A DNA stretch of 64,000 nt from Streptomyces sp. R302 (lineage in GTDB: Bacteria; Actinomycetota; Actinomycetes; Streptomycetales; Streptomycetaceae): positions 310,001 to 374,000 of the forward strand of contig NZ_JABBGE010000002.1 of assembly GCF_012927245.1 (NCBI RefSeq). The letters run 5' to 3'. Shown here in pieces: positions 2 to 20,925 of the stretch (positions are counted from its first letter, which is position 1; each line of letters opens with the position of its first letter). A program made the position numbers and the translations under genes. The notes beneath the pieces were generated by a model. It was given only the letters and a program-made list of their open reading frames with translations. It had not been told where the DNA came from and did no database searches.

Positions 2-934
2 ACCGCCGAGGACATCCACGAGCGAGTCCGCGCCCGCTTCCCGGAACTCCTCGACGAGCGGGGCGGCCACTCGCTGCCGAAGGACGGCCGGCTGACGAAG
101 GCCCTGAAGGCCGCCGGTTTCGACCTGGAGCTGTCGACCCGGGCGGGCACCCCCCGTATCTCCCGCTATCTGCCGCGGCAGACCAAGGACGACTCGAGCT
201 TCCTGTCCCTCGGGAACCTGCGGAAGCCGACCGCCTTCCTGTCCGAGCACCGTTACGCCGACGACGTACAGCTCGCGGGCGCGGTGACGGCGGAGGAGCG
301 GCTGCTCGCCTCGGCGCCCCGGGACGGCTTCCGGGTCCTGACCGTCCGGACCGGTCTCGCGACGGAGGCGGTGGAGGAGGTCACGGGTTCGCGCTTCGGG
401 GCGGAGCCCGTCTCGGTGACCGAGCTGTTCCTCGACGCCCTGCACGAGCTGGTGGACCGGCGGCCCAAGCCGACGTGGGAGACGATCCTTCGCGCGGATG
501 TGGCCGAGCCGGGTTCGAAGGCAGCGATGAAGTTCGCCGAGTACGCGGGGACGGCGTGGGGCGCCGTGGAGCCCCGGCTGGGCGAGCTGCTCACGGGCGG
601 GGCGCGGGTCCCGCTGTTCCTGACGGACGCGGGTGCGCTGGCGCGGTACGACGCGATGGGCGTCCTGAACCGGCTCGCGGAGCGGTCACGCGGCGGCGGA
701 CGCGGCCTGTGGCTGCTGTGCCCGCAGGACGACCCGGCGCGGCCGCCTAGGCTGGGAACGGTGGCCGTGCCGTATCAGGCGGGGCTCGGCGAATGGGTGG
801 TGCTCCCGGACGCGTGGGTGGAGAACGCCCACCGGTCGGGTGGGCAGCGCCGCGACGGTTTCGGAACGACGAGTACGACGGATACGACGAGTCCTATGGG
901 TACGACGGGGAACTGGGGAGACGAGGCGAAGTGA
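2..934 (+). CDS. pglW: BREX-2 kinase PglW, C-terminal part (5' truncated by window)
   Basis: The frame is open from base 2 and ends at TGA 932-934, so only about 310 C-terminal residues are visible. PglW in Streptomyces is a serine/threonine kinase of roughly 1,500 residues belonging to the phage growth limitation (BREX type 2) system. The kinase domain itself lies outside the window. The visible part holds a region with helicase-accessory-like character and a low-complexity tail rich in Thr, Ser and Gly just before the stop. The identification rests mainly on the next gene: the stop overlaps the pglX start (GTGA at 931-934), the usual translationally coupled pglW-pglX arrangement. Sequence alone would not name this fragment; the context does. 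Confidence 0.82.
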   Translation, partial: TAEDIHERVRARFPELLDERGGHSLPKDGRLTKALKAAGFDLELSTRAGTPRISRYLPRQTKDDSSFLSLGNLRKPTAFLSEHRYADDVQLAGAVTAEERLLASAPRDGFRVLTVRTGLATEAVEEVTGSRFGAEPVSVTELFLDALHELVDRRPKPTWETILRADVAEPGSKAAMKFAEYAGTAWGAVEPRLGELLTGGARVPLFLTDAGALARYDAMGVLNRLAERSRGGGRGLWLLCPQDDPARPPRLGTVAVPYQAGLGEWVVLPDAWVENAHRSGGQRRDGFGTTSTTDTTSPMGTTGNWGDEAK

Positions 935-3900
935 TCGACCGCGATGCGTTGAAGGCCGACCTGATCAAGCAGGTCAAGGCGGTCGAGGCGGATCTCGGCA
1001 GGCAGGTGAAGGACGGCGAGGGCGTCGCCAAGCCGCTGCTGGCCGAGTACAAGAAGGCGCTGAAGGCCGACCCCCGGGGGACGGTCGAGTGGGACGCCTG
1101 GCTGGAGCCCCGCCTCGCCGAGTACGCGGACGACCGCGCCGAGCGCATTCGCGTGGCCGGACGGCTGCTGAACGAGCACGACCGGGCGTTCTCGCTGGGG
1201 CGTACGGCGGAGTCGTGGAACTCGTGGCTGTACGGCACCCCGCAGATCTCCGGCCGCATCACGCAGGTGGCGGTGGCGTGGGTCCTCGGCACGGTGTTCG
1301 TCCGCTTCTGCGAGGACAACCTGCTGATCCCCGAGCCGTACCTGGCGGGCCCGGACGAGGAGCGCCGCGACCTGGCGGAGGCGCGGTACGCGCAGTACGT
1401 GGAGGAGGAGCAGGACCCGACGTTCCGTGGCTGGCTGGAGCGGGCCTTCAAGGAGATCGGTGAGGGCGAGGCCGGCAAGCTGCTGTTCAACCGGCAGCGC
1501 AACCCGCTGTACCAGATCCCGATCTCGCACGACGGCGCGCGGGCGCTGGTGGAGTTCTGGCGGGAGCGGGACGAGGCGGGCCGGCTGGTCCACGACTTCA
1601 CCGACCCTCTGAACGAGGACGGCACGGAGGGGTGGGACACCCGGTTCCTGGGGGACCTGTACCAGGACCTGTCAGAGGCCGCGCGGAAGACGTACGCGCT
1701 GCTGCAGACGCCGGAGTTCGTGGAGGAGTTCATCCTCGACCGGACGATGGGGCCGGTGGTGCGGGAGATGGGCGGGCGCGTCGGCGAGCTGAAGATGATC
1801 GACCCCACGTGCGGGTCGGGTCACTTCGTGCTCGGCGCATTCCGGAGGATGGTGCGGCTGCTGGCCGAGCGGCAGCCGGGCATGGAGCTGCACGCGCGGG
1901 TGCGGATGGCGCTGGACGCGGTGCACGGTGTCGATATCAACCCGTTCGCGGTGGCCATCGCGCGATTCCGGTTGCTGATGGCGGCGATGGCGGCGGCGAA
2001 TGTGCGGACGCTGGGGGAAGCGTCGCAGTACGACTGGCCGGTGCACCTGGCAGTGGGCGACTCGCTGATCAAGGTGCGTCAGACGGAGCTCGGCATCCTA
2101 GGGACAACGGGGCTGCAGGGTGAACTCGAGTTCGTTACGGATGAGACGGACAAGCTGGCGGAGTTCTCGTATGCGACAGAGGACATCCACGAGGAGGAAT
2201 TCAAGGGGATCTTGGAGCAGGGGCGGTATGACGTGGTGGTGGGGAACCCGCCCTACATCACCGTCAAGGATAAGAAGCTGAACGCACTGTACCGGGACTT
2301 GTACAAGTCCTGCGCGGGCAAGTACGCATTGTCGGTACCCTTTGCCGAGCGGTTCTTCCAGTTGGCGAAGGCGGGAGAGCCTAACGGGCGCGGGTACGGG
2401 ATGGTCGGACAGATCACCGCCAACTCGTTCATGAAGAGAGAGTTCGGCACCAAGCTGATCGAAGAATACTTCGCGCACAAAGTTGAACTTATGGAGGTTA
2501 TCGACACCTCTGGCGCCTACATTCCAGGCCACGGAACACCAACCGTGATCTTGGTTGGCCGACGGCGTGCTGGCAGTAGGCGAGGCGAGACGATCCGCAC
2601 TGTACGTAGCGTGCAGGGCGAGCCGTCCACACCAGAGAGGGGGCAGGAAGGGTTGGTCTGGAAGGCGATCAAGAGTCACATCGACACCCCTGACCATCCA
2701 TCCAATCGCTGGGTTTCCGTGAGCGACCTAAACCGCGAGACCAGCTTTGGCAAGCAGCCATGGATTCTCACCGACGGCGGCTTGGAGATGATTCATAGAA
2801 TCGACCAGGCGAAGCAGGGGAGGCTGAATCGAGATATCGCCCGGATAGGGTTCTACGGCATCATGGGGGCAGACGACGCCATGGCTGCACCGCCGCGAGC
2901 CTTTCAGCGGATCAACGCGGAGAGCGCTGCGGTGAGACAACTCGTAGTCGGGGATGAAGTACGGGACTTTGACTTCGCTGCCGGCGATCTCGCGTTCCAT
3001 CCCTACGACATGAACCGTAACCTCTCACAACTAGCATCCTTCCCCCGACTGGCTCGATGGCTTTGGCCCAACCGCACAGAGCTAGGAAATCGCGCCACCT
3101 TCTCTAGAGGAACCTACTTCGGAGATGGACGCCCTTGGTGGGAGTGGCATCAGCTTCCCAAGGATGAGGCAGCACATAATTGGTCGATCGCGTTCTCATT
3201 CGTATCTACACACAACCACTTTACGTTGGATCGAGACGGGAAGGCATTTAACAGGTCGGCGCCACTTATCAAGCTGCGGAAGGAGGCAAGCAAAGACGAG
3301 CATCTGCGACTGCTTGGACTACTTAACAGCTCCACCGCTTGCTTCTGGCTTAAGCAGGTAAGCCACAACAAGGGAAGCACCGTGGATTCTCAGGGTGCGC
3401 GACAGTCTACAATCCCGTTTGAAGACTTCTACGAGTTCACCGGTACAAAGCTCCAACAATTCCCACTTCCGCGGAACTATCCCACCCGCCTTGCTAGCTC
3501 TCTTGAATCCCTGGCACAAGAGCATGCGGCGGTCAGCCCTTCAGCGCTGACCGCCCTCTCTGTCCCCACTCCTACGAATAGCGACTTCCACAACGCCTGC
3601 GCTAAGTGGGCGGCTTGTCGAGCCCGGATGATCGCGCTCCAGGAGGAGCTGGATTGGCAGGTGTACTCGCTCTACAACCTGCATCCCGAGGACCTGCGGG
3701 CACCCGAAGCTGAGGTGCCTGAGCTTTCGCTTGGTGAGCGGGCCTTTGAGATCGTGCTGGCGCGGCGGGTCGAGGCCGGCGAGGCTTCGGGTGAGTGGTT
3801 CAAGCGGCATGGGTCGACCCCCATCACCGAGATGCCCGACCACTGGTCCGACGCGTACAAGGCCGTCGTGCAGAAGCGCATCGACGCCATCGAGAACAGC

Positions 3901-4746
3901 CGTGCCATCGGCATGATCGAGCGGCCCGAGTACAAGCGCCGCTGGGCAACCGAGGGCTGGGACGTGCTCCAGGAGCGGGCGCTCAAGGCATGGCTGCTCG
4001 ACCGGATCGAGACGCGCGAGTACTGGTTCGACGAGAACGGTCAGCCGACCATCCTCACCCTCAACCAGGTCACCGACGTGCTCTCGCGCGACGAGGACTT
4101 CGTGTCCGTTGCCGAGATCTACGCCCCCCGCCAGGAACTCGCGACCGTCGTATCCGACCTCCTCTCCGACGAGCACGTCCCCTTCCTCGCCGTCCTGCGC
4201 TACAAGCCCGCCGCCCTCAAGAAGCGCGCGGACTGGGAGCACGTCTGGGACCTGCAGCGGAAGGAGGACGCGGAGACCGACGAGTTCGAGAAGCGGAAGA
4301 TCCGCGACTCGATTCCCGTACCGCCCAAGTACACCTCGGCGGACTTCCTCAAGCCCTCCTACTGGCGTGCGCGCGGCAAGCTCGACGTGCCCAAGGAGCG
4401 GTTCATCTCGTACGCGACCGGGGCGACCTCCGGTACACCTCAGCTCTTCGGCTGGGCCGGCTGGGATCACCGTGAGCAGGCACAGGCACTGTCCACGTAC
4501 TTCACCGTCCACGACGAGCTGTCCGCCGAGGAACTGACCCCGCTCCTCGCCGGCCTCCTCGAACTGCAGCCCTGGCTCACCCAGTGGCACAACGAGTTCG
4601 ACGGCCTGTATGGCGGCTCCCCCGCGGCCTTCTTCGAGGGTTACCGAGCCGCCAAGCAGGGCGAACTCGGCCTGACCGACGACGACCTGCGGGCGTGGCG
4701 ACCCCCGGCTGCGGCCCGCCGAGGCCGACGGCCCGCCAAGGGCTGA
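931..4746 (+). CDS. pglX: BREX-2 adenine-specific DNA methyltransferase PglX
   Basis: An N6-adenine methyltransferase of about 1,271 residues. In BREX it marks host DNA, and it is also needed to restrict phage. The SAM-binding motif I reads DPTCGSGHF at residues 291-299 and the catalytic motif IV reads NPPY at 439-442. The GTG start at 931 overlaps the pglW stop and has GGAGACGAGG upstream; the open frame reaches back to 793 but there it overlaps pglW. The region around 2120-3620, mainly the target-recognition part, is visibly poorer in GC and uses codons rare in Streptomyces (AGA at 2437, 2797, 2935 and 3106), while both flanks are normal. That suggests the specificity domain was exchanged by transfer. 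I saw no homopolymer tract longer than six, so phase variation is not obvious. Confidence 0.95.
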   Translation: MIDRDALKADLIKQVKAVEADLGRQVKDGEGVAKPLLAEYKKALKADPRGTVEWDAWLEPRLAEYADDRAERIRVAGRLLNEHDRAFSLGRTAESWNSWLYGTPQISGRITQVAVAWVLGTVFVRFCEDNLLIPEPYLAGPDEERRDLAEARYAQYVEEEQDPTFRGWLERAFKEIGEGEAGKLLFNRQRNPLYQIPISHDGARALVEFWRERDEAGRLVHDFTDPLNEDGTEGWDTRFLGDLYQDLSEAARKTYALLQTPEFVEEFILDRTMGPVVREMGGRVGELKMIDPTCGSGHFVLGAFRRMVRLLAERQPGMELHARVRMALDAVHGVDINPFAVAIARFRLLMAAMAAANVRTLGEASQYDWPVHLAVGDSLIKVRQTELGILGTTGLQGELEFVTDETDKLAEFSYATEDIHEEEFKGILEQGRYDVVVGNPPYITVKDKKLNALYRDLYKSCAGKYALSVPFAERFFQLAKAGEPNGRGYGMVGQITANSFMKREFGTKLIEEYFAHKVELMEVIDTSGAYIPGHGTPTVILVGRRRAGSRRGETIRTVRSVQGEPSTPERGQEGLVWKAIKSHIDTPDHPSNRWVSVSDLNRETSFGKQPWILTDGGLEMIHRIDQAKQGRLNRDIARIGFYGIMGADDAMAAPPRAFQRINAESAAVRQLVVGDEVRDFDFAAGDLAFHPYDMNRNLSQLASFPRLARWLWPNRTELGNRATFSRGTYFGDGRPWWEWHQLPKDEAAHNWSIAFSFVSTHNHFTLDRDGKAFNRSAPLIKLRKEASKDEHLRLLGLLNSSTACFWLKQVSHNKGSTVDSQGARQSTIPFEDFYEFTGTKLQQFPLPRNYPTRLASSLESLAQEHAAVSPSALTALSVPTPTNSDFHNACAKWAACRARMIALQEELDWQVYSLYNLHPEDLRAPEAEVPELSLGERAFEIVLARRVEAGEASGEWFKRHGSTPITEMPDHWSDAYKAVVQKRIDAIENSRAIGMIERPEYKRRWATEGWDVLQERALKAWLLDRIETREYWFDENGQPTILTLNQVTDVLSRDEDFVSVAEIYAPRQELATVVSDLLSDEHVPFLAVLRYKPAALKKRADWEHVWDLQRKEDAETDEFEKRKIRDSIPVPPKYTSADFLKPSYWRARGKLDVPKERFISYATGATSGTPQLFGWAGWDHREQAQALSTYFTVHDELSAEELTPLLAGLLELQPWLTQWHNEFDGLYGGSPAAFFEGYRAAKQGELGLTDDDLRAWRPPAAARRGRRPAKG

Positions 4747-4752
4747 GCCCTG

Positions 4753-4794
4753 ACGGTGGTTCCTCCTCCCCCGAGCGGGAGGAGGAACCACCGT
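4753..4794. terminator. Perfect-stem bidirectional terminator after pglX
   Basis: An 18-bp perfect inverted repeat, arms 4753-4770 and 4777-4794 (left arm ACGGTGGTTCCTCCTCCC), with a 6-nt loop. It lies seven bases after the pglX stop and three bases from the stop of the convergent Uma2 gene, so it probably ends transcription from both sides. There is no clear U-tract, which is common in Streptomyces. Confidence 0.85.
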
Positions 4795-4796
4795 CG

Positions 4797-5390: not shown

Positions 5391-5461
5391 GATGGCTTCT
5401 CCATCGCCTGCGTGGAGCGAGTACGGGGCAGGATGTGATCGAGACGACTGCGCGTTTCACG

Positions 5462-6076: not shown

Positions 6077-6157
6077 GGTGCAACCCCCTGAGGGTCAACG
6101 GTCCACCGACATCGAGTAGCCGGTGCCATGACCAGGAGGATGGCCCGACATCACACG

Positions 6158-6177
6158 AATCTGCAACGTTGCAGATT
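6158..6177. promoter_or_regulatory. Perfect 20-bp palindrome, likely operator of the WhiJ-like regulator
   Basis: AATCTGCAACGTTGCAGATT is a perfect palindrome in the 175-bp divergent gap between the ATP-binding gene (start 6076) and the HTH gene (start 6252). The gap is unusually AT-rich for this genome. The position suits a site where the HTH protein controls both directions. The binding protein is inferred from position only. Confidence 0.7.
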
Positions 6178-6251
6178 GAGTTGGAATCAAAGTTCGCCTT
6201 TTCGAGTTAATCCAACCCCCTAGAGGCTCTCGCTCTGCTAGACGTGTTGCC

Positions 6252-7542: not shown

Positions 7543-10500
7543 ATGGCCCCGACCGCCGCCACGGCCCCCATGCTCCGCGATGTCATCGACATCAAGACGT
7601 CGATCTCCACCTCCGACTTCGTCCTGAAGCTCGCCGAGGCGGTCACCGAGGAGGGCACCGAGCGTGCGCTGCGCGACTACGTCGTCACCGAGCGGCTCCT
7701 GGAGAACTTCGACGAGGCCCTCGGGCTGATCAAGGCCGCCCTCGACGGACACACCTCGAAGGCCGCCTACCTCCACGGATCCTTTGGTTCCGGTAAGTCG
7801 CACTTCATGGCCGTCTTGCACGCCCTCCTCCGAGGCGCCCCGGCGGCCCGCGCCCGAGCCGACTTCGATCCCGTCCTCGCGAAGCACGAGTGGCTGGGCA
7901 CCGAGCGGAAGCGGTTCCTGCTCGTCCCGTACCACATGCTCGGCGCCAAGTCCCTCGAGCAGCGCGTCCTCGGCGGGTACGTCAGCCACGTGCGGGCGCT
8001 GCACCCGGACGCGCCCATCCCCCAGGTCTACCGGACCGACGCCCTCTTCGAGGACATCCGGTCGCACCGTCTCCGCATGGGCGACGACGCCTTCATCAAC
8101 GGTCTCAGCGGCGCCGAGACGGAAGTCGATTCCGCCGCAGCCGACGACGAGGACGAGTGGGGCGACTCCTTCGCCTGGACGCCCGCCCACCTCGACACCG
8201 CCCTCTCCGCCGAGGAGCTGGACGGCGGCGAGGTCAACCTCAACCTGGTCAACCCGACCACCCCTGCCGAGTTGCGCGCCAAGCTCGTCCACGACGCCAG
8301 CGCCACCTGGTTCCCCGGCTTCGCCAAGAACGCCGCCGAGGACGAGCACGGGTTCATCTCGCTCGACGCCGGCCTCGCCGTGATCGCCGAGCACGCGAAG
8401 TCGCTCGGGTACGACGGGCTGATCCTCTTCATGGACGAGCTGATCCTCTGGCTCGCCAACCGCATCCACGACCAGAAGTTCGTCTCCCGCGAAGCGGACA
8501 AGATCACGAACTTCGTCGAGGGCGCCGACTCGCGCCGGGCGATCCCGATCGTCTCCTTCATCGCCCGCCAGCGCGACCTGCGTGAGCTCGTCGGCGAGGA
8601 GACCTCCGGCGCGGCCGAGACCGCGATCCAGGACAGCCTCAACCTTGCCTCCGGTCGCTTCGACAAGATCACCCTCGAGGACCGCAACCTCCCGCAGATC
8701 GCCCACGCCCGGCTCCTCAGGCCGAAGAACGCCGAGGCCGCCGCCAAGCTCGACGCGGCCTTCGCGAAGATCAAGCGGGTCGGGCCGCAGGTGTGGGACG
8801 TGCTGCTCGGGTCCGAGGAGGGCACGACCGGTGCGGACGAGGACTCGTTCCGGCTGACGTACCCCTTCTCCCCCGCTTTCATGGACACCCTCGTCCACAT
8901 CTCCTCGGCCCTGCAGCGTTCCCGCACCGGTCTGAAGCTCATGGGCCAGCTGCTCGCCAACCACCGCGACGACGCCACGCTCGAACAGCTGATCCCTCTC
9001 GGCGATCTCTATCCGGTGATCGCGGACGGCGGCGACAAGCCGTTCGTGGACGCGCTGAAGGTGGAGTTCAAGGCTGCCGACAAGCTGTACCGGTCCAAGC
9101 TGCGCCCGCACCTCCTCGCCACGTACGAGGTCACCGAGGAGGACATCGAGCGCTACCGGCACCGGCCCGGCAGTATCACCGATCCGCAGCTGCTCAACCG
9201 CTGCAAGGGCTTCATCGGCGACAACCGGCTGATGTGCACCCTGCTGCTGTCCGCTCTCGCGCCGAGCGTTCCGGCGCTGCGCGACCTCACGATCCGGCGG
9301 CTCGGCGCGCTCAACCACGGTTCGGTGGTCTCGCCCATCCCCGGCGCCGAGGTCGGCGTCATCAAGGCGAAGGTCGACGAGTGGGCCGCCAACTTCGCCG
9401 AGATCAAGCCGACGGGCACCACCGCCAATCCGGGCGTGCGCCTCGAGCTGGCCGGCGTGGACGTGGACTCCGTCATTGCCAACGCCAAGGCCAACAACAA
9501 CCGGAACAACCGACTCGCGCTCGCCCGGCGGCTCCTCGAGGAGGAGCTGGGAGTCGAGCGGCAGGAACAGCTCAGCGACGCGGACGATCTCCGGCTCGTC
9601 TGGCGAGGCTCGAACCGGACCGTCGAGGTCGTCTTCGGCTACATCGCCGACACCGACCAGCTGCCGGACCACGATCTCGCCCCCAGCCAGGAGGGGCTGT
9701 GGCGACTGGTGGTCGATCTGCCTTACGACGAGGGCGAGTTCGGCCCCCGCGACGACGTCAACCGGATGCAGAAGCTCCGCGAGCGGCCCGGCATGCCGCC
9801 CCGGACCGTGGCCTGGATCCCCACGCACCTCTCGGCGGCCCGCTACAAGGACTTCGAGCGCCTGGTCACCATCGACTACGCGCTCGCCGATCCGCGCCGC
9901 TTCGACACGATGTACGCGCAGCACCTCAACGCCGACAACCGGGCGCGCGCCAAGGGCCTGCTCGAGGGGCAGCGGAATTCGCTCGTCAAGTCGGTGAAGG
10001 CGGCCTTCAAGCAGGCGTACGGGCTGGCGGCCAAGGCGCCGGCGGATGTCAACGTGTCGTTCAACGATCACTTCGAGTCGCTGCGTGAGGTGCCCGACCT
10101 GCGGGTCTCCATCGGGCAGTCTCTCAGTGACGCCGCCCGTCACATCGCGTCGAAGCTGCTCGCTCAGCAGTTCCCCGCCCACCCCGATCTTGACCCGGAA
10201 GGCAGGAAGACCGCGGTCCGGCCCGCCGACGCGCGAACCGTCTTCGGTTACATCCGGGCCGCCGTCGAAGCCGGCGACCGGCAGGCCGAGATCCCGAACA
10301 AGGACCGCGACGCCATGCGGCGGATCGCCGCGCCCCTCGGCCTCGGCCAGCAGAAGGAGGCGTACTTCCGGCTGTCCAACCGCTGGGTCGAGCACTTCGC
10401 GCTGCAGGCCCGTACCGACGGCGGGCCCGGCGACCTCAGCGTCGTACAGCTCACCGACTGGATCGACCGGCCCGAGCCGATGGGCCTCGAAACCTTCCTC

Positions 10501-11472
10501 GCCAACCTGGTGATCGCCTCGTACGCCGAGATGGACGACCGGGTCTGGGTGCGGTCCGGGGCCCTGCTCGACCCTGCGCCGGAACTGTCGTCCATCAAGC
10601 CGATCGACGCCCTGCGCTCGCAGCCGCTGCCGGACGAGTCGGTCTGGGAGGAGGCGGGGCGCCGGTACTGGGACATGTTCGGGGAGAAGCCGCCCACGCT
10701 GCGCCGCGGCCGGATCGTCGGCCAGTTCGCACGCCAGATCCTGGGCAAGGCCCGGGAGTACCAGCAGCCCGCGGACACACTGGTCACGGAGCTGGAGAAG
10801 CACGCCATACTTCTCGGCCTGGACGGCTCCGACGAGGCCGGCCGGCTCGCGCTGGCCCGGCGCTCGCGCGACCTGCTCGACGAGTTGAAGGGCATGGACC
10901 GGGGGGCGGCCGGTGGCGCGGCGGCGGCCAAGCAGGTCATCACGGCCTTCGCCGGCTTCGACCTGGGCGAGGTGTCCGCAGGCCGCTACGGGGCCTCGAT
11001 CAAGCAGGCGCAGACCGTCGCCTCCGCTCTGGCCACCACGGTGTGGGACATGCTCAAGCTCGCGCCCAGCTACGGCCCCGAGGGCGAGGCAGTCCTCGAG
11101 CGGCTGCGCCGCGCGGCCCAGGCCGACCAGCGCACCGAGAACCTGAAGGACGAGCTGGAGCGGGCCGGAAAGTCGATCATCGAGGTGATCCGGCGCAGCC
11201 AGGCCGCCGCCGCTCCCGCGCCGCAGCCGCCGGTCCCGGTCGCACCGGAGCCCGTCGGTCCCCGCACGCCCAACGAGGTGGACCTCAGCACCGAGACCAG
11301 CCACCCGCCGGTGCCCACCAGCCACCCGGCGCCCGGCCGTGCCACGCGCCGCTCGGGTGGCGGCCGGACCAAGGCGTCGCAGGCGCTCGCCGAGCTTCGT
11401 GCGGAGCTGGCCGAGCTGATGGAGTCCGAGCCGGACGCGACCGTCGAGATCTCCTGGCGGGTGGTGGAGTGA
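7543..11472 (+). CDS. pglY: BREX-2 ATPase PglY
   Basis: A large P-loop protein of 1,309 residues and a core BREX-2 component, equivalent in position to BrxC of type 1 BREX. The Walker A motif is GSFGSGKS at residues 79-86. A hydrophobic strand ending ILFMDELI near residue 295 is the likely Walker B. The C-terminal 100 residues are Pro/Ala-rich and then helical. The ATG at 7543 follows CAGGAGAC at a suitable distance. The stop overlaps the pglZ start. It probably works with PglZ on phage-DNA sensing or processing; the exact mechanism is not known for this family. Confidence 0.94.
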
Positions 11473-14360
11473 CCTCTGCGGCTGCCTCGACCAGCGCGGT
11501 ACGGCTGTACCCGGCCACCGTCACGCAGTATCTGGCGTCCGCGTCGAGTCTCCGGCCGGGCAAGCGGCGGGCCGTGTTGCTGCGAGGCGCCCCGCAGTGG
11601 GACGGCCCTGCCGAGCTCACCTGGGGCGAGAGCCGGCGTGCGCGGGTCGTGGCGGCGCCGTCGCCGCTGGCCGTGTACGAATTCGTCCTGGACCATCTGG
11701 CGCCGAAGGCCGCCGGGCCCGATGTGCTGGTCGTCCTGACCGACCGCGAGGAGGCGGAGCTCGGGCCGGATCTGCTGGCCAAGGTGCACAAGCAGCGCGT
11801 CAACGCCGTCGACACCTGGGACGTCGTACGCCAGTCCTTCGGGGCGATCGACACCGACGGTCGGCTGCTCGACGACAACTGGGCCGCCGAGGCACTGCTC
11901 GACGCCGCCCCGCCTGGTGGCTGGCCGACCCGCGGCGGCGGTGTGCTGTCCCGGAACGAGGCGCTGGCTGCGCTCACACTGCGGCGGCTCGGCATCGGCC
12001 GATACGACCCCGACCGGGATCCCGCCGTGGCGCTGACGGACGCCGACGACGTCCTCGATGTGCCCGCGCTTCTGCGCTGGTCGCTGCGGCCGGGTGGACC
12101 GGACCGTTTTCTGGCCCTGCGGGCGGCGGAACGCCGGGGGCTGGCTCGCTTCCTCGCCGGGGAGGAGCAGGCGGGAGAGGCAGGCAAGGCGCTGCTCTCC
12201 CTGGTGGAGGCCGAGCACGGGCCGGACGCCGTGGCCTTCGGGCTGCTGTGCGCGGCGCTGTGGGAACACGTCGACGCGGAGGCGGATCCCGAGATCTACC
12301 GGGCACGCGGGCGGGCCGAGCGCTGGTTCGGGGAGAGGCCGCCCGCGCAGGGTGATGCCTTCGACCGGCTGGCCGCCGCCTTCGGGCGGGCCTGCGAGGA
12401 GTTCGTGTCCGGGCTGCTGCTCGCCGGGCGCTCGAGGCATGCCGAGTTCGGCGAGTCGGCGGCGGACGCGCGGAGGATCACCGGCACGGTCCTGGACCGG
12501 GCCGCGACACTGGTACGGCAGTTCGGCGCGGAGGCGGCCGAGCGCAGGAGCCCGGTGCTGCGGGCAGGTCTGGAGGCCCGGTTCTCGGAGGTCGGCGAGG
12601 CCCTGCGGTCGGGAGCGACCGAGCGGACCCTGCAGGCCCTCGACCTTCTGGGCGGGCATCGGCTGGCTGCCGACACGGACGAGCAGGTCCGCATCGGGCG
12701 GGCCCGCATGGCGCAGCGGCTGGCCCAGTGGCTGGCATCCGAGCCCGAGACCCGGGCGCCGAATCTGTCGGGCGCGCTCGAGCGGCACGTCGACGAGACC
12801 GGCTGGGTCGACATGGCGCTCGAGCACGTACAGGCCGGTGGCGATCCCGATCCCATGCTGAAGTCCGCGTACGACTCGCTGTGTGCCGCTGTCCGGGAGA
12901 AGCGACGGGAGATCGACCGGGAGTTCGCCGGCATGCTGGCGGTCTGGACCGAGGGTGGCCGGGACGCGGGCGAGATGCTGACGGTGGAGAGCTTCCTGCC
13001 GAGGGTCGTCGCTCCCTTGGTGAAGTCCGGGGAGCGGCGGATCCTTCTGCTGGTCCTCGACGGAATGAGCGCTGCCATCGCCGCGGAACTCGGCGAGGAG
13101 CTGCGCGAGCACTGGGCGGAATACGACCCGCTGCCCGGGGCGAAGGAGGCGCCTCGACGGCGAGCGATGGCAGCCGCGCTGCCGACCGTGACCGCGGTGT
13201 CGCGTACGTCGCTGTTCGCCGCCCGGCTCATGCGAGGCGACCAGGCTGACGAGAAGCGACTGTTCCCGGCGCACAGGTTCTGGGGCGGCACGCGGGCGGC
13301 GGTCTTCCACAAGGACGATCTGCGTGCCGACAGCGGGGGCGACTGGCTCGGCCCCGAACTCCTCGAGGCGCTCGCCGGCGAGCAGACCCATGTCGCCGTC
13401 GTGCTCAACACCGTCGACGACCGGCTGGCGAGCGAGCAGAAGCTCGGTGACGGCGCGTGGCGTCTCGACCAGATAGGAGCACTGCGGTCGCTGCTGCGGC
13501 ATGCCGCGGCCGAGGGCCGGGCCGTGCTGATGACCAGCGACCACGGTCATGTCGTCGACCGCTATGGCGTACGTGTGCATGCCACGGGGGTGGAGTCGGC
13601 GCGGCATCGCCTGCCCGGGCAGCCGCTGTCCGAGGCGGAGATCGCGCTGTCCGGGCCTCGTGTCGTCGACCCGGAGCCGGGCGGCGAGATCGTGGCGCTC
13701 TGGAACGCGGACGCACGCTACAGCGCTCAGCGGGCCGGGTATCACGGTGGGGCCGCGCTGGCCGAGGTCACGATTCCGGTGATGGCGTTCCTGCCCTTCG
13801 GCGCCACGCCGCCGAAGGGCTGGCGGGAGCTCGGACACCCGCAGCCGTCGTGGTGGCACCTGGGCGGCGACGCCCCCGTACGGTCGCAGCAGCGGCCGGT
13901 GGCCAAGCAGGTCCCGGCCCCCAAGCCGTCGACCAGGCGCGCGAAGGACGAGGCGGCGCTGGCCAAGAGCCACGACTCGCTGTTCGATGTGGCGCTGGTC
14001 CCGTCGCCGGACGACGAGACGCTGCTGGCCGTACAGCCGGTGTCACCGGACGATGCCCTCGTCACCGCTCTGCTCGCGTCCGAGGTCTTCACGTCCCAGG
14101 TGGACATGCTGGCGCGGAAGCCGGACCTCGGGCGGGTGGAGCAGGCCGTACGCGCGTTGATCGACGCGGGCGGCACGCTGCCGATGACCGCGTTGGCACA
14201 GCGGGTCAGCCTTCCGGCCTCGCGGAGGGTGGAGGGTTTCGCCGCGGTGCTGCGCCAGTTGCTCAACTACGACGGGGTGCAGGTCCTGGAGACCCTGCCG
14301 GACGGGCGCACCCTGCGGTTGAACCTGGGGCTTCTGAGAGAGCAGTTCGGACTGCGGTGA
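11469..14360 (+). CDS. pglZ: BREX-2 phosphatase-like protein PglZ
   Basis: A protein of about 963 residues with the PglZ domain, a member of the alkaline-phosphatase superfamily and the signature protein of all BREX systems. LVLDGMSAA places the first metal-ligand Asp at 531, and TSDHGH at 689-694 gives the second Asp/His cluster. The GTG start at 11469 overlaps the pglY stop (GTGA). The frame is open further upstream to 11043, but that stretch lies wholly inside pglY in another frame. It ends just before a strong terminator, so pglY-pglZ is a closed transcription unit. Confidence 0.94.
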
Positions 14361-14396: not shown

Positions 14397-14400
14397 GACC

Positions 14401-15453: not shown

Positions 15454-15454
15454 G

Positions 15455-17323
15455 TCAGCTCTCACCCGCCGGCTCGCCGCGGAAGACGGTCCGCTTGCCC
15501 ATCGTCGCCTGGACGAGCTCGAGGAGCTGGCTCGCGCGGTCCTCGTAGAACTTGTCGAAGTCCGACTCGTGGAGCGCGACCGGGTCGACGAGGTGGGTAG
15601 CGATGATGTCGTCGAACCACTCCTCGCGCACGCCGGACTCGAGCTGGAGCGCCTTGAGGTAGGAGGCCGGCGGACCCGCGATGCTGCGGCTGGCGCGGAA
15701 GGACAACGGCGTCTTGTTGACGATGGAGTTGACCTTCTTGAAGTGCAGGCTGGAGTTCTTCTCCGCCCAGTTCTTGGGGAAGATCTGACGGATGTCGACG
15801 TTGTTGGACACGATCTTGTCGGCGTTGAGCGGCGCCTCGGTGAAGTACCAGTCCACCGCCCCTTGCTTGATCAGCAGCGCGTAGATCCCCTTGTAGGCGG
15901 CGCTGTTGCGCGTGGTGAGCGAGTCGAGTCGATCGGTGAGGAACACGGCGTCCGAGACCGTGTCGGGGACGACTCCCGGCTCCCGGCGAATCCAGGCGAC
16001 AAGCTGTTCCACGTCACGGGTGAAGCGGCTTTCGAGCGAACCGCTGTACATCTCGCCGAGAACACCGTTCCAGTACCACTGGGCGATCTTCTCCTCGCCG
16101 TCCGCGGTGTCCGTCGCCTCTCCGACGATGGCCCGGACCGCGGCCAGCGGCACAAGCTGCGTCCGGTACGGCAGGTCGGCGCCGCGCACGATGCACTGGC
16201 TGTGCAGGAAGGAGCCGACCCACTCGAAGGCGTCGGCGATGCGCGGGGCCAGGCGGCGGAAGTCCGCGAGGGGCAGCTCCAGCAGGTCCCGGCGCTTGCA
16301 GGAGACGGCGGTGCGCGGGTTGGACTGCTTCAGCTCCCAGGTGCGCAGCAGGGCCACGGCCTGGAGGAAGTCGCTGCTGCTGAGGCCGTCGTCCAGGCCG
16401 GCCTCGAGGTTTCCGAGCACCTGGTATCGGGACGCGAGCCGCGTCTTGAGGCGCTCCCACTCCGTCGGAAGCTGGTAGTAGGTGCCGAACTCCGCCACGT
16501 GCTTCTGGTTCCCCGCGTACGTCGCGGTGAGCAGCTCGAACACGTTCAGGGGCACGCCACCGGTGTTGACGCGCTCGAAGACCGCGCAGACGGCGTCCAT
16601 GCTGGTCTGGGCCGGAAGGTTGATCATGGGCACGTTGAATGCCTGGACATGGAGGAGCACGTGTTCCGCGAACAGTGACCAGTGGTCCCAGTTGGCGCCG
16701 TCGAGCTGCACGTAGGAGCGCTGCCAGTCGTTCACGCGCTTCGTGTCGAAGACGATGTTCAGTGGGAAGTACCCCGCCGCGCATTCCTTCCCCATCGTGC
16801 TCAGGTCGAGGACGACGCTGCGCGCGAAATTCGTCTTAAGGACACGGTCCTCGGGTACGGACACGATGGCTTCATCGCGCTCGGAAGGCGAGCCGATCGC
16901 CTTCGCGATGTCGATGTAGTACCAGCGCTTCAGTTCCTTGCCCCGGCCGTCGACCGTTTCCACCGGCTGATCCCTGTGGAGCGCCTGGAAGAGCGAGGTC
17001 AGTCGCTGCTGGCCGTCCAGGAGCAGCAGCTCCGGTGTCTCGGCGGACGCCTCTTCGGCGCCGCTGAGCGTCCGGGCCTTGAACTTGGGCTCACCGCCCG
17101 TCTGGAGTGTCATGGCCACGCCCAGCGGGTAGTTGAGGGTCACGGTTGCGATCAGTGCCCTGATGCGCTCGTCGTCCCACTTCCACTCGCGCTGGAAGTC
17201 GGGGAGCTGCAACGCTCCGGTGGCGACCTTCTTGAGAAGGTCCCTGAGCTTCGGATTGTCAAGGGACACTCTGACTATTCCCTCACCTGGCGCATGAATG
17301 GTGTAACGGGCAATCTCACCCAT
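15455..17323 (-). CDS. DUF262 (GmrS-like) protein with degenerate DUF1524/HNH region
   Basis: A protein of about 622 residues. The N-terminal DUF262 domain shows LPDFQREWKW at about 40-49 and LLDGQQRLTS at about 101-110, the ParB-like nucleotide-hydrolysing signature of the GmrSD and BrxU type IV restriction families. Near the C terminus, DIRQIFPK (510-517) and NSIVNKTPLS align with the DUF1524 nuclease pattern DIHHIFP...N..N, but both histidines are replaced by Arg-Gln, so the nuclease may be dead. The ATG at 17323 is chosen; a TTG at 17341 is possible. It is the first gene of a leftward pair with the CBS-HEPN gene, inside the BREX locus between pglZ and brxD. A sensor role with the HEPN as effector is an inference. 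Confidence 0.82.
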   Translation of the reverse strand: MGEIARYTIHAPGEGIVRVSLDNPKLRDLLKKVATGALQLPDFQREWKWDDERIRALIATVTLNYPLGVAMTLQTGGEPKFKARTLSGAEEASAETPELLLLDGQQRLTSLFQALHRDQPVETVDGRGKELKRWYYIDIAKAIGSPSERDEAIVSVPEDRVLKTNFARSVVLDLSTMGKECAAGYFPLNIVFDTKRVNDWQRSYVQLDGANWDHWSLFAEHVLLHVQAFNVPMINLPAQTSMDAVCAVFERVNTGGVPLNVFELLTATYAGNQKHVAEFGTYYQLPTEWERLKTRLASRYQVLGNLEAGLDDGLSSSDFLQAVALLRTWELKQSNPRTAVSCKRRDLLELPLADFRRLAPRIADAFEWVGSFLHSQCIVRGADLPYRTQLVPLAAVRAIVGEATDTADGEEKIAQWYWNGVLGEMYSGSLESRFTRDVEQLVAWIRREPGVVPDTVSDAVFLTDRLDSLTTRNSAAYKGIYALLIKQGAVDWYFTEAPLNADKIVSNNVDIRQIFPKNWAEKNSSLHFKKVNSIVNKTPLSFRASRSIAGPPASYLKALQLESGVREEWFDDIIATHLVDPVALHESDFDKFYEDRASQLLELVQATMGKRTVFRGEPAGES

Positions 17324-17461
17324 GCGATCACGCCACGTCAACCGACATTCAGGACTCTGTCACAACGGCCTCCAATGGTATTCAGCCACGGCAGCCGAGC
17401 GCCGGTTCTCCCCAGCGGGGACCGGCCCGGCAGGCAGCGCGCGAATGGAACACTGAGGGGT

Positions 17462-18796
17462 GTGAGCACCGACCAGCCCCAGCCCCCCGCCTCCGTGAGC
17501 GCCGCCCGGCGGCGCGATGTCATCGACGCCCTGCGCCGCGGAGCCGTACCCGAGAGCGGGCTCGATCTGCTGGCGACAGGCCTCGACAGGTTCGAGACCG
17601 CCCTCGACGCCGAACTGGACGCCGTCGCGTCGGGATCCTCCGTCTTCAAGGCTGTGCGAGGCGAGTACGGGTCCGGCAAGACCTTCTTCACCCGCTGGCT
17701 GGGCGAGCGCGCCAAGCGCCGGAACTTCGCCGTCGCCGAGATCCAGATCTCCGAGACCGAGACGCCCCTGCACAAGCTGGAGACCGTCTACCGCCGCCTC
17801 ACCGAACGACTGGCGACCCCCGGTTTCCCGCCGAGTGCTCTCCGTCCGGTCGTGGACGCGTGGTTCTACGCGCTGGAGGAAGACGCCCTGGCCGCCGGTG
17901 TGCCGGAGGAGAAGTTGCCCGACGAGGTCGACCGGCTGACCGAGGACCGGCTGACCGAGGTGTCGCGGCACGCCCCCTCGTTCGCCGCCGCGCTGCGTGG
18001 ATACCGCAAGGCGCAGGAGGAGGGCGACGAGGCCACCGCGTCGGCCGTCATGGCCTGGCTGGGCGGGCAGCCGCATGTCGCGGCCTCGGCGCGCAGGGCC
18101 GCGGGGGTGCGCGGCGACCTGGACCATTTCGGCGCGTTCGGATTCCTCCAGGGGCTGCTGACCGTGCTGCGCGACTCCGGGCACGCCGGCCTCTTCGTCG
18201 TCCTGGACGAAGTGGAGACCCTGCAGCGGGTCCGCTCCGACGCCCGTGACAAAGCGCTCAACGCGCTGCGGCAGCTCATCGACGAGGTGCACTCGGGGCG
18301 GTTCCCCGGCCTCTATCTGGTCATCACGGGCACGCCCGCGTTCTTCGACGGGCAGCAGGGCGTCCAGCGGCTCGCGCCGCTCGCGCAGCGTCTGGCAACC
18401 GACTTCACCACCGATCCTCGCTTCGACAATCCGCGCGCGGTACAGCTTCGTCTGCCGGGCTTCACCCTGGATTCCCTGGTGGCCCTCGGTCTCACCATCC
18501 GCGACCTCTACGCGGGCGGATCCGCTACCCCGGAGCGGGTGACCGCGGCCGCCGACGACGCGTACATCTCCGATCTGGCCCGGGCCGTCGGCGGGGCGCT
18601 GGGGGGCAAGGTCGGCGTGGCACCACGGCTGTTCCTGAAGAAGCTGGTGGGTGACGTCCTCGACCGGATCGATCAGTTCGAGGACTTCGACCCGCGCCGG
18701 CACTACGCGCTGACCGTGAGCACGTCGGAGCTGAGCGAGGTCGAGCGCAACGCGGCCGCGGGCAGCGCCGACGAGGTCGAGCTGGAGCTCCCGTGA
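17462..18796 (+). CDS. brxD: BREX-2 ATP-binding protein BrxD
   Basis: An AAA-type ATPase of about 444 residues. Walker A is GEYGSGKT at 67-74 and Walker B ends VVLDE with the acidic pair at 249-250. BrxD is one of the two genes that, with brxHI, extend the Pgl set to a full type 2 BREX system. I chose GTG 17462 because it gives the usual family length; the purine-rich GAGGGG directly abuts it, so the message may be leaderless or nearly so. An in-frame ATG near 17374 would add about 30 residues of poor quality. The stop overlaps the brxHI start. It is divergent from the DUF262 gene across about 140 bases, so the two may share a control region. Confidence 0.9.
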   Translation: MSTDQPQPPASVSAARRRDVIDALRRGAVPESGLDLLATGLDRFETALDAELDAVASGSSVFKAVRGEYGSGKTFFTRWLGERAKRRNFAVAEIQISETETPLHKLETVYRRLTERLATPGFPPSALRPVVDAWFYALEEDALAAGVPEEKLPDEVDRLTEDRLTEVSRHAPSFAAALRGYRKAQEEGDEATASAVMAWLGGQPHVAASARRAAGVRGDLDHFGAFGFLQGLLTVLRDSGHAGLFVVLDEVETLQRVRSDARDKALNALRQLIDEVHSGRFPGLYLVITGTPAFFDGQQGVQRLAPLAQRLATDFTTDPRFDNPRAVQLRLPGFTLDSLVALGLTIRDLYAGGSATPERVTAAADDAYISDLARAVGGALGGKVGVAPRLFLKKLVGDVLDRIDQFEDFDPRRHYALTVSTSELSEVERNAAAGSADEVELELP

Positions 18797-20925
18797 CCGC
18801 AGGCGCCGATCCTCTCGACCTCCTCCACCCCGGCCTGGTCCACCACATCGTCAACACCCTGGGGTGGCCCGGGCTCCGCCCGCTCCAGGAGGAGTCGATC
18901 ACCCCGCTGATGAACGGCTCCGATGCCGTGCTGCTCGCGCCGACGGCAGGCGGGAAGACCGAGGCCGCGTCCTTCCCGCTGCTGTCGAGGATGGAGCGGG
19001 AACGGTGGAGCGGCACGTCCCTCCTGTACGTCTGCCCGCTGAAGGCGCTCCTGAACAACCTGCTTCCCCGGCTGGAGACGTACGCCTCCTGGCTGGGCCG
19101 GACGGCGGCACTGTGGCACGGTGACGTGGCGCAGTCCCGGCGCGGACGCGTTCTGCGCGAGCGGCCGGACATCCTGCTGACCACCCCGGAATCCCTCGAG
19201 GCGATGCTGGTCAGTGCGAAAGTCGACCACCATGCCTTCTTCTCGGGACTGCGAGCGATCGTCGTCGACGAGGTGCATGCGTTCGCCGGAGACGACCGGG
19301 GGTGGCACCTGCTAGCCGTGCTGGAACGTCTGGAACGTGTCGCCGGACGACCCGTCCAACGTGTCGGACTCTCCGCCACCGTCGGCAATCCCGACCAGCT
19401 CCTCGAGTGGCTCCAGGGAGCGGGCGCCGGCAAGCGGCCCGCCCGGGTCGTGGCCCCGCACCTGCGTGAGACCTCTCCGGCGCTCCCACCGCCGGGCGAG
19501 GTACAACTCGACTACGTCGGCTCCCTGGCCAACGCGGCGACGGTCATCGCGGCTCTGCACCAGGGTGAGAAGCGTCTGGTGTTCTGCGAGTCGCGCAAGC
19601 AGGTGGAGGAGCTCGGCGCGAGTCTCCGCGCCAAGGGCGTGACCACCTTCCTCTCCCACGCCTCCCTCTCCGCAGACGAGCGCCGACGAGCGGAGGACGC
19701 CTTCGCCGAGGCCCGTGACTGCGTCATCGTCTCCACCAGCACCCTGGAGCTGGGCATCGACGTGGGAGACCTGGACCGGGTCGTCCAGATCGACGCGCCC
19801 GGCACCGTCGCCTCGTTCCTCCAGCGCCTCGGACGCACGGGCCGTCGGCCGGGATCCGTACGGAACTGCCTGTTCCTCGCCACCGACGAGGCCGGACTGC
19901 TGTCGGCCGCGTCTCTGCTACTGCTCTGGGGCCGTGGCTGGGTCGAACCCGTGACCCCGCCCCCCGAGCCCCGGCACATCGCGGCTCAGCAGGTGCTCGC
20001 GCTGTGCCTTCAGGAACATCGGGTCGGGGACCGGCTGTGGCAGGAGTGGTGGGGAGGACTCGGCCCGTTCGGTCCGCCCGCCGCCCCGGTCGTACGTCAT
20101 CTGGTCGCGGAGGGCTTCCTGGACCAGGACGGCGGCCTGCTGTTCATCGGCCCGGAGGCCGAGAAGCGCTTCGGGTACCGGCATTTCATGGATCTCACGG
20201 CGGTGTTCACCGCGGCTCCGGAGTTCACCGTTCTGGCCGGCCGTACGGAGATCGGTTCGACGGACCCCGCCCTGCTGACGGACGAGATCGTCGGACCCCG
20301 GCGGCTGCTGCTCGCCGGGCGCAGCTGGCAGGTCACCTCCATCGACTGGTCCCGGCGCCGCTGTTTCGTCGAGCCGGCGGACGGAGGCGGGCGGGCCCGC
20401 TGGGGTGGCGTCGGCTTCCCTCAAGGGTCTTCGTACGATCTCACCCGGGCCGTTCGCGACGTGCTGCTCGGCTCGGATCCCCCTGTGGCCCTCACCCGGC
20501 GCGCCGAGAACGCCCTCGCGCAAGCGCGCGAGTCGAACGCCGAACTGGTGCATCCCGGCGGTTCGCTGATCATCCGCGGGCGAAGGGACACCAACGTCCG
20601 TTGGTGGACGTGGGCCGGCTATCGCGCCAACGCGACCCTGGCCGCCAGCCTCGGGACGGTGACGGACCCCCTGCAACGCCCCACCTCCGCCTACCTCCGG
20701 CTGCGCGAGGACCTGACCGCGGAGGAGTGGCGCAAGGCCGTCGCGGAGGCCGCCCGTCAGCTTTGTTTGCCTGCCGTTGATCCTCGTGCGGTGACCGGCC
20801 TCAAGTTCAGTGCCGCTCTGCCTCCACGGCTGGCTGAGGCCACGCTCGCCGCCCGGCTGGCCGATCTCGAGGGCGCCTCTGCGGTTCTACGGGAGCCGAC
20901 CAGGTTCACGTGGAGCCTGGCATGA
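18793..20925 (+). CDS. brxHI: BREX-2 Lhr-like DEVH helicase BrxHI
   Basis: A superfamily 2 helicase of 710 residues. Motif I is APTAGGKT at 49-56, motif II DEVH at 159-162, motif III SAT follows, and motif VI reads QRLGRTGRR. The C-terminal 250 residues correspond to the Lhr-type accessory region. The GTG start overlaps the brxD stop (GTGA at 18793-18796). A hairpin follows immediately, which closes the BREX locus. In BREX-2 this helicase is a standard component; whether it acts on phage DNA or on complex assembly is not resolved. Confidence 0.92.
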   Translation: MTAGADPLDLLHPGLVHHIVNTLGWPGLRPLQEESITPLMNGSDAVLLAPTAGGKTEAASFPLLSRMERERWSGTSLLYVCPLKALLNNLLPRLETYASWLGRTAALWHGDVAQSRRGRVLRERPDILLTTPESLEAMLVSAKVDHHAFFSGLRAIVVDEVHAFAGDDRGWHLLAVLERLERVAGRPVQRVGLSATVGNPDQLLEWLQGAGAGKRPARVVAPHLRETSPALPPPGEVQLDYVGSLANAATVIAALHQGEKRLVFCESRKQVEELGASLRAKGVTTFLSHASLSADERRRAEDAFAEARDCVIVSTSTLELGIDVGDLDRVVQIDAPGTVASFLQRLGRTGRRPGSVRNCLFLATDEAGLLSAASLLLLWGRGWVEPVTPPPEPRHIAAQQVLALCLQEHRVGDRLWQEWWGGLGPFGPPAAPVVRHLVAEGFLDQDGGLLFIGPEAEKRFGYRHFMDLTAVFTAAPEFTVLAGRTEIGSTDPALLTDEIVGPRRLLLAGRSWQVTSIDWSRRRCFVEPADGGGRARWGGVGFPQGSSYDLTRAVRDVLLGSDPPVALTRRAENALAQARESNAELVHPGGSLIIRGRRDTNVRWWTWAGYRANATLAASLGTVTDPLQRPTSAYLRLREDLTAEEWRKAVAEAARQLCLPAVDPRAVTGLKFSAALPPRLAEATLAARLADLEGASAVLREPTRFTWSLA

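What the first reader, a model, noticed from the sequence alone, without database searches (positions are those of the whole stretch)
2120..3620. Mosaic specificity region in pglX
GC content falls visibly and AGA, CTA and ATA codons appear only in this middle stretch, corresponding to the region after NPPY where target recognition lies. Flanks are normal high-GC Streptomyces sequence. This suggests domain replacement that would change the methylated sequence, as happens in type I restriction specificity genes.
Basis: partly seen in the sequence, partly recalled or inferred. Interest (0 to 1): 0.6.

Follow-up and report, generated by a model that had tools for sequence, protein, structure and literature searches.

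The report
Exchanged target-reading modules in pglX
The AT-rich middle of this phage-defence methyltransferase gene is its DNA-target-reading part, which related bacteria have swapped in two separable pieces; but the relatives compared all have the same AT-rich middle, so it marks a constantly exchanged part, not a recent foreign insert.

Summary
pglX (likely start GTG at 931, stop 4746) drops from 70% GC to 57% in 2120-3620, the lowest 1500-base stretch in the window, and all ten AGA/CTA/ATA codons of the gene lie at 2098-3319. The gene is the methyltransferase of a type 2 BREX (Pgl) locus. The dip covers the end of the methyltransferase domain, the target recognition domain (TRD) and the first spacer helices.

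Across 128 distinct pglX genes both ends share one history (pairwise identities correlate 0.95), while the centre does not. It splits into two modules, T1 (2611-3180) and T2 (3301-3690), exchanged independently: 401 of 417 pairs at least 90% identical at both ends have T1 below 60%, and likelihood tests reject one tree for T1, T2 and ends. The dip is synonymous, absent from neighbouring pglW and pglY, and present in 17 of 21 type 1 BREX pglX (not in four from AT-rich hosts); Streptomyces hsdS genes are AT-shifted too. A small substitution count suggests it is maintained in place. New methylation motifs are inferred, not shown.

The parts
931..4746 (+). pglX, BREX type 2 adenine-specific DNA methyltransferase, 1271 aa, likely GTG start overlapping the pglW stop (932-934)
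   Evidence: NF033451 BREX_2_MTaseX equivalog, 1664 bits against a cut-off of 400; only match to this protein found in its own genome
1801..1824 (+). SAM-binding motif DPTCGSGH
   Evidence: translation, positions from the profile; motif name recalled
2245..2256 (+). catalytic motif NPPY (residues 439-442)
   Evidence: translation and profile; NPPY role in PglX from passages of PMC4365076
2461..3747 (+). best-fit low-GC3 segment of this gene (0.65 against 0.92 outside)
2611..3180 (+). module T1 (residues 561-750): first and largest part of the TRD, mean pairwise identity 0.40 in the family; most variable in residues 621-760
   Evidence: model match to CamA and M.TaqI
3193..3330 (+). more conserved hinge (residues 755-800) between T1 and T2, near which the internal junction falls
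   Evidence: entropy 1.2-1.3 in residues 761-800 against 2.0-3.0 in 621-760; junctions near residue 771-801
3301..3690 (+). module T2 (residues 791-920): end of the TRD and first spacer helices; exchanged independently of T1
   Evidence: residues 791-900 or 801-890 in the last two; helices in the model
3628..4731 (+). conserved C-terminal domain DUF7008
   Evidence: PF22654, 548 bits
2..934 (+). 3' end of pglW (its 5' end lies upstream of the window)
   Evidence: C-terminal end of NF033442 and PADLOC PglW (227 and 197 bits; the NCBIfam cut-off of 990 is for the whole protein)
7543..11472 (+). pglY (BrxC-type ATPase)
   Evidence: NF047891, 2217 bits, cut-off 1700
11043..14360 (+). open frame of pglZ (real start not fixed, probably near the pglY stop)
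   Evidence: NF033446, 934 bits, cut-off 200
16682..18796 (+). brxD
   Evidence: NF033438, 661 bits, cut-off 350
18793..20925 (+). DEAD/DEAH helicase, brxHI by position (inferred)
   Evidence: PF00270 and PF00271; no BREX helicase model among the 25 families shown of 30

Best explanation
pglX is the methyltransferase and site-reader of a type 2 BREX phage-defence locus. The AT-rich stretch is the end of its methyltransferase domain, its TRD and the first spacer helices. In this family the DNA coding for it is replaced between strains by recombination whose ends fall in conserved sequence: on the left in the methyltransferase domain (about residues 320-440), on the right near residues 890-980, and sometimes inside, near the hinge at residues 755-800. 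T1 and T2 can therefore be exchanged together or one at a time, giving new combinations on an unchanged body. Shown: the domain placement (model), the independent histories of ends, T1 and T2, and the AT-rich synonymous composition of the centre in every gene compared. Inferred: that homologous recombination between pglX alleles of different strains does it (no second copy or silent cassette was found in this genome) and that each exchange alters the recognised sequence and so which phages are excluded. The low GC marks a module that is always in exchange; it does not date an insertion in this gene.
For: Membership: NF033451 far above cut-off, with pglW, pglY, pglZ, brxD and a helicase around it. 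Fold: AlphaFold model (pLDDT 82) matches CamA (MTase plus TRD) over model 153-837, i.e. residues 233-917 (Z 31.4, 548 residues aligned, rmsd 3.0), E. coli BrxX with DNA (Z 28.5) and MmeI (Z 24.3). Exchange: over 8128 pairs of 128 genes, N and C end identities correlate 0.95, T1 with ends 0.33-0.34, T2 with ends 0.32-0.33, T1 with T2 0.22. 401 of 417 pairs with both ends at least 0.90 identical have T1 below 0.60, and 383 of 417 have T2 below 0.70. Steps along DNA: L144/L150 and L145/L147 differ in T1 and keep T2; L007/L013 and L090/L013 keep T1 and differ in T2. In 40 genes the T1 and T2 data reject the end trees and each other (log-likelihood losses 668-2490; SH p 0) while N and C are compatible by SH (0.18-0.20). 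12 of 128 genes share T1 with one gene and T2 with another; 5 pairs share both, of 68 sharing T1 and 53 sharing T2. This gene: Spearman of its identities N-C 0.80, N-T1 0.16, N-T2 0.12, T1-C 0.06, T2-C 0.01. One match in the own genome.
Against: No allele with near-identical ends to this gene was found (best N end 0.87, best C end 0.86), so no fresh junction can be shown in it. KH and AU tests reject the N tree for C data and vice versa (AU p 0.0004 and below), so the ends are not perfectly clonal either; trees were made with the fast setting and the program warned of too few replicates for AU. Very fast divergence could imitate part of the T1 signal, though not T2 being shared where ends and T1 are not (L064/L073: ends 0.51 and 0.60, T1 0.38, T2 0.79). 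Such sharing across clearly diverged bodies is rare here: 2 pairs for T2, 1 for T1. I saw no methylation motif of a type 2 PglX in the listings and passages, so change of specificity is untested.
Confidence: 0.82

Rival explanations
1. A single recent import: the centre of this gene came from a low-GC donor and has not yet adapted to the host.
For: Low GC and host-rare codons with step-like edges.
Against: All 128 genes compared have the dip, as do type 2 pglX from Proteobacteria. A search with T1 alone in 391 genomes of the same order matched 80; all listed matches but one (G029, 189 aa) lie in open frames of at least 965 aa, the size of pglX, the best foreign one 57% identical. That search did not look outside the order, so a closer T1 in a distant low-GC species is not excluded. 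Substitutions in the few close triplets give an equilibrium GC near the present low value, not near that of the flanks.
Confidence: 0.07
2. The centre simply evolves fast by point mutation under phage pressure, with no exchange; weak conservation relaxes codon choice and lowers GC3.
For: Entropy and GC3 are negatively correlated in pglX (-0.74), and also in pglW (-0.55) and pglY (-0.66).
Against: In pglW and pglY, 40-codon windows with entropy 1.3-1.8 keep GC3 of 0.84-0.92; the one lower value, 0.78 at entropy 1.9, is the first window of the pglW frame, whose start was not fixed. The conserved methyltransferase end of pglX (entropy 0.3-1.0) has mean GC3 of only 0.70. Trees conflict and T1 and T2 are shared separately.
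Confidence: 0.08
3. Programmed shuffling inside one genome: silent TRD cassettes or inverted repeats switch the module, as in some type I hsdS loci.
For: The type I analogy; pglX of S. coelicolor is phase variable through a G tract (passages of PMC4365076).
Against: One match only in the own genome, 25 contigs and 99.88% complete; repeats inside the gene are short and imperfect; the longest homopolymer is six C at 4124.
Confidence: 0.02
4. A hidden antisense gene (for example the minus-strand frame 2098-2697) constrains the sequence.
For: The frame is open in this gene.
Against: It is open in only 16 of 128 aligned genes, mean 2.3 stops.
Confidence: 0.01

Closest known systems
BREX type 2 / Pgl system PglX (Streptomyces coelicolor)
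   Same: Same family (NF033451), same gene set, NPPY methyltransferase.
   Different: No long G tract for phase variation here (longest homopolymer six C). The main text of PMC4365076 has no occurrence of 'target recognition'.
BrxX/PglX of BREX type 1 (E. coli, Salmonella; PDB 9ewz, 8c45)
   Same: Same overall fold; [quoted passage not shown] similar AT shift of the TRD in 17 of 21 genes.
   Different: Sequence similarity weak outside the motifs; two independently exchanged modules and the synonymous AT shift were not in the passages shown to me.
Type I restriction specificity subunit HsdS, and domain movement of TRDs in Helicobacter pylori
   Same: Exchangeable target-reading segments and combinatorial specificity (passages of PMC3983042); low GC3 in Streptomyces.
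   Different: HsdS is a separate subunit with two whole TRDs; here two segments of one TRD plus spacer inside the methyltransferase are exchanged. Whether sequences move between the two positions was not tested.
CamA / M.TaqI / MmeI type methyltransferases
   Same: MTase followed by a TRD of the same fold.
   Different: No BREX genes around them and, for CamA and M.TaqI, no such long C-terminal part (recalled; the structural matches end near model residue 837 and 771).

Membership tests
BREX type 2 methyltransferase PglX | Match to the curated equivalog model NF033451 | tested here: met
   1664 bits, cut-off 400
BREX type 2 methyltransferase PglX | Locus with pglW, pglY, pglZ and brxD | tested here: met
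   component list from a passage of PMC12839542
BREX type 2 methyltransferase PglX | BrxHI helicase in the locus | tested here: inconclusive
   a DEAD/DEAH helicase follows brxD, but no model specific to BrxHI was seen among the families shown
BREX type 2 methyltransferase PglX | SAM-binding and NPPY motifs, MTase plus TRD plus spacer fold | tested here: met
BREX type 2 methyltransferase PglX | Adenine methylation and phage exclusion | not testable with these tools
   needs an experiment
Phase-variable pglX | Long G/C tract inside the gene | tested here: not met
   longest homopolymer six C at 4124; 9 of 128 genes have a tract of 7 or 8
Exchangeable TRD (domain shuffling as in type I hsdS) | Conserved flanks and divergent centre among alleles, with discordant histories | tested here: met
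   for the family; for this gene by its relatives only
Exchangeable TRD (domain shuffling as in type I hsdS) | Change of recognised sequence after exchange | not testable with these tools
   no methylome data
Type I HsdS (PF01420) | Methylase_S domain | tested here: not met
   Pfam scan of pglX gives DUF7008, Eco57I and MmeI_Mtase only; no PF01420 match in the own genome
Cassette- or inversion-driven shufflon | Silent TRD copies or recombining repeats in the genome | tested here: not met
   single match in the own draft genome; only short imperfect repeats within the gene

The most novel reading that the evidence does not exclude
Target-reading modules of phage-defence enzymes keep an AT-shifted synonymous composition in place, in different systems and hosts, because they are too divergent to take part in ordinary homologous recombination (and so escape GC-raising gene conversion or its equivalent), while the ends of the same gene do take part. 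If so, an internal GC3 trough could be used to locate exchanged specificity modules in raw genomes without alleles to compare, and the pglX trough would be a within-gene test of what keeps high-GC genomes GC-rich.
Probability: 0.3. Interest if true: 0.72.

Novelty: new variant of a known kind. Interest (0 to 1): 0.5.

Why it matters
TRD exchange is a known way for restriction systems to change targets, and TRD variability in BREX type 1 is in print. What is added here is that type 2 BREX pglX exchanges two segments of a single TRD region independently on a stable body, which would let a strain change part of its motif at a time; and that the low GC which looks like a fresh foreign insert is a standing property of these target-reading modules. 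That warns against dating transfers by GC in defence genes and gives a simple search signal for such modules. It also makes a question testable: why one part of a gene, in the same message and the same hosts, is held at a different synonymous composition.

Tried and rejected
Recent low-GC import as the whole explanation: rejected because all 128 genes compared have the dip. A common donor pool of fixed intermediate GC: not supported by 21 type 1 pglX genes; TRD GC3 follows the flank (0.49 x flank + 0.10, r 0.86), and four genes from AT-rich hosts show no dip and little or no rise, so a mid-GC pool does not fit, but an AT-rich pool with partial adaptation is not excluded. Amino-acid composition: rejected as the main cause, because GC at fourfold sites falls from 0.87 to 0.55 (T1) while positions 1 and 2 go from 0.57 to 0.55; in the methyltransferase end and the hinge they do fall, to 0.49. 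Weak conservation alone: see rivals. Antisense gene, silent cassettes, G tract.

Limits and failures. The pglZ row used a wrong frame and is discarded. One search stopped with an error after its first group; those seven genes were redone with anchors. The first alignment (86 relatives) was replaced by 127 distinct relatives (146 near-full-length frames before duplicates were collapsed) plus this gene; there, 5 partial or broken frames were dropped (two of L081, and one each of L060, L074, L073; L073 still contributes its main frame). The relatives are the best 80 of 113 and the 30 plus 40 highest-ranked places (save one partial match that I passed over), not a full census. Region limits vary a little between calls: T1 561-750, 601-750; T2 791-920, 791-900, 801-890. 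One of 128 three-segment fits was inverted. The equilibrium-GC counts rest on one T1 triplet and 2 or 11 T2 triplets and could be disturbed by recombination within triplets; two triplets for the methyltransferase end gave 0.83, like the ends, though in genes whose present value there is already 0.88. The tree test used 40 of 128 genes chosen to differ by at least 15% over residues 121-1240, which favours genes with different centres. The hsdS comparison used the 30 best-scoring loci from 71 of 150 genomes with a match, measured the whole S frame rather than the TRDs, and could measure a partner hsdM in 19, found by a simple motif rule. The Sphaerotilus gene L185 also has low GC3 in its first two N-end bins. 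Of the 21 type 1 genes, 14 were chosen by me from 60 rows listed of 309 plasmid records and 7 are the full-length matches above cut-off. Papers were seen as listings or passages only, none whole. Searches for prior reports.

Full report
What was checked. The gene in question most likely runs from a GTG at 931, overlapping the pglW stop, to 4746. The frame can be read from 793, but most relatives begin at query residues 1-47, many at 42-47, and pglW ends at 934. It is a BREX type 2 PglX by the curated model NF033451 (1664 bits, cut-off 400), in a locus with pglW, pglY, pglZ, brxD and a DEAD/DEAH helicase. It is the only match to this protein found in its genome.

GC is 0.574 in 2120-3620, 0.700 before and 0.676 after; low windows form a run from 2001 to 3750, and the lowest 1500-base windows of the 64 kb start at 2051 and 2101 (0.575). 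All ten AGA, CTA and ATA codons of the gene lie at 2098-3319 (chance of so narrow a span 0.00025). A high-low-high fit to GC3 gives 2461-3747, GC3 0.65 against 0.92, log-likelihood gain 70 against at most 12 in 40 shuffles.

Where it lies in the protein. NPPY is at residues 439-442. The AlphaFold model of residues 81-1271 (44 aligned sequences, pLDDT 82, pTM 0.79) matches CamA, an MTase with TRD, over model 153-837 (residues 233-917; Z 31.4, 548 residues aligned, rmsd 3.0), M.TaqI up to model 771 (residue 851), E. coli BrxX bound to DNA (Z 28.5) and MmeI (Z 24.3). A long helix at model 803-834 (residues 883-914) is taken as the spacer. So the dip covers the end of the methyltransferase domain, the TRD and the first spacer helices.

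Is the low GC special to this gene? No. In 128 distinct genes (this one plus 127 relatives from 150 loci), GC3 averages 0.88 and 0.89 at the ends, 0.70 in the conserved methyltransferase end, 0.59 in T1 and 0.64 in T2; T1 and T2 are below the mean of the ends in 128 of 128. AGA, CTA, ATA and TTA make up 931 of 67,043 codons in residues 381-920 and 276 of 88,981 elsewhere. Type 2 pglX of Proteobacteria show the dip too; the Azospirillum gene steps from 0.86 to 0.39 at residue 440 and from 0.41 to 0.75 at residue 800, and several show two separate troughs. The neighbours do not: mean GC3 of pglW (70 genes) and pglY (33 genes) is 0.91, with lowest 40-codon windows of 0.78 (the first of the pglW frame, whose start was not fixed) and 0.84, although entropy and GC3 are negatively correlated there as well (-0.55, -0.66). 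The dip is synonymous: fourfold-site GC falls from 0.87 at the ends to 0.55 in T1 while positions 1 and 2 go from 0.57 to 0.55. Of 21 type 1 pglX genes, the 17 with flank GC3 above 0.4 have a lower TRD and the four with flank GC3 of about 0.2-0.3 do not; TRD GC3 = 0.49 x flank + 0.10 (r 0.86). In Streptomyces type I systems hsdS GC3 averages 0.69 against 0.88 in the partner hsdM, lower in 18 of 19 measurable loci of 30.

Is there replacement? Yes, in the family. Over 8128 gene pairs the identities of the N end (121-360) and C end (931-1240) correlate 0.95; T1 (561-750) and T2 (791-920) correlate 0.32-0.34 with the ends and 0.22 with each other. Of 417 pairs with both ends at least 0.90 identical, 401 have T1 below 0.60 and 383 have T2 below 0.70. 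DNA profiles show steps: L144/L150 and L145/L147 fall after residue 440 and recover at 801 with T2 kept; L007/L013 and L090/L013 keep T1 and differ mainly from 801 to about 980. In 40 genes, likelihood tests on T1 and T2 data reject the end trees and each other (losses 668-2490 log units, SH p 0); the N and C trees differ by 131-177 units and pass the SH test but not the KH and AU tests. With thresholds of 0.70 and 0.75, 93 T1 groups and 97 T2 groups occur in 128 genes; 68 pairs share T1, 53 share T2 and 5 share both; 12 genes share T1 with one gene and T2 with another. Across diverged bodies T2 is shared in L064/L073 and L143/L146, and T1 in L096/L128.

And in this gene? Its N and C ends rank the 127 relatives alike (Spearman 0.80), but T1 and T2 do not follow (N-T1 0.16, N-T2 0.12, T1-C 0.06, T2-C 0.01). 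Best partners are L088 for N, L005 for C, L003 for T1 and L014 for T2. The nearest ends are only 0.86-0.87 identical, so no fresh junction is visible. A search of 391 genomes of the order with T1 alone matched 80 genomes; all listed matches but one lie in frames of at least 965 aa, the size of pglX, the best foreign one 57% identical. Genomes outside the order were not searched with T1. Donors are therefore most simply other pglX alleles, and with one copy found in the genome they come from other strains (inference).

Why does the low GC persist? Substitutions at fourfold sites in close triplets give equilibrium GC of 0.56 for T1 (one triplet, 29 changes) and 0.63-0.66 for T2 (2 or 11 triplets), against 0.86-0.94 for the ends of the same genes. 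Adapting imports should show values near those of the ends. This is a small sample, but it favours maintenance in place. Against a simple picture, two triplets for the methyltransferase end gave 0.83, in genes already at 0.88 there. On average the conserved methyltransferase end shares the low composition although its protein is conserved, and the fitted left edges scatter widely (5th to 95th percentile: residues 250-549), as expected if exchange ends at varied points and carries neighbours along. I propose that divergent modules escape the process that keeps the ends GC-rich, for instance biased gene conversion during homologous recombination; that idea and the general AT bias of mutation are recalled, not taken from a call. 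Continued import from AT-rich sources is not excluded.

What is known. In the passages seen, the TRD is the most variable part of type 1 BrxX (PMC11842806); the E. coli and Salmonella systems diverge within pglX, which the authors relate to variable TRDs (PMC9009780); phase variation of pglX is said to be common (PMC11341690); TRDs are said to diverge fast (PMC12839542); domain swap and point changes identified the TRD of BrxX (review PMC12707154); and TRD movement between and within genes is described in H. pylori (PMC3983042). Eight searches listed nothing that I recognised as describing two exchanged modules in type 2 pglX or a standing AT shift of TRDs; I saw listings and passages only, and most subscription papers are not in that library.

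Verdict. Ordinary as a gene, real as a mosaic, and mistaken as a sign of a recent foreign insert. The two-module exchange is a modest new variant of TRD shuffling; the standing AT shift is the part a specialist might not expect.

Noticed in passing
window 6252-7136: A helix-turn-helix plus DUF5753 regulator gene lies between pglX and pglY, at a second low-GC spot (6001-6450, minimum 0.58); possible local regulator.
   Followed up: no
window 4797-5390 and 5462-6076, minus strand: A Uma2-family (putative restriction endonuclease) frame and a histidine-kinase-like ATPase frame on the opposite strand between the pglWX and pglYZ parts.
   Followed up: no
window 14365-16678: Two open frames between pglZ and brxD with no Pfam, PADLOC or NCBIfam match at E 0.001; possible accessory genes of the locus.
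   Followed up: no
L022, L014, L097, L017, L070, L101, L054, L143, L144: 9 of 128 pglX genes carry a G/C tract of 7 or 8, possible phase-variation sites; this gene does not.
   Followed up: partly
pglX relatives: 24 of 128 pglX genes hold TTA codons (22 codons in residues 381-920, 26 outside, which may include some frame upstream of real starts); in Streptomyces TTA is read by the developmental tRNA bldA (recalled), so exchange may bring developmental control.
   Followed up: no
G150:C437, G298:C27, G079:C1: Some genomes hold a second, diverged pglX-like gene (42-44% identical to this one) about 5-9 kb from the first.
   Followed up: no
L181 (Thiodictyon plasmid), 1361-5517: pglX annotated as two pieces with another open reading frame between them; apparently interrupted gene.
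   Followed up: no
window 23941-24825: LigD primase-polymerase domain gene a few kb downstream of the helicase of the locus.
   Followed up: no
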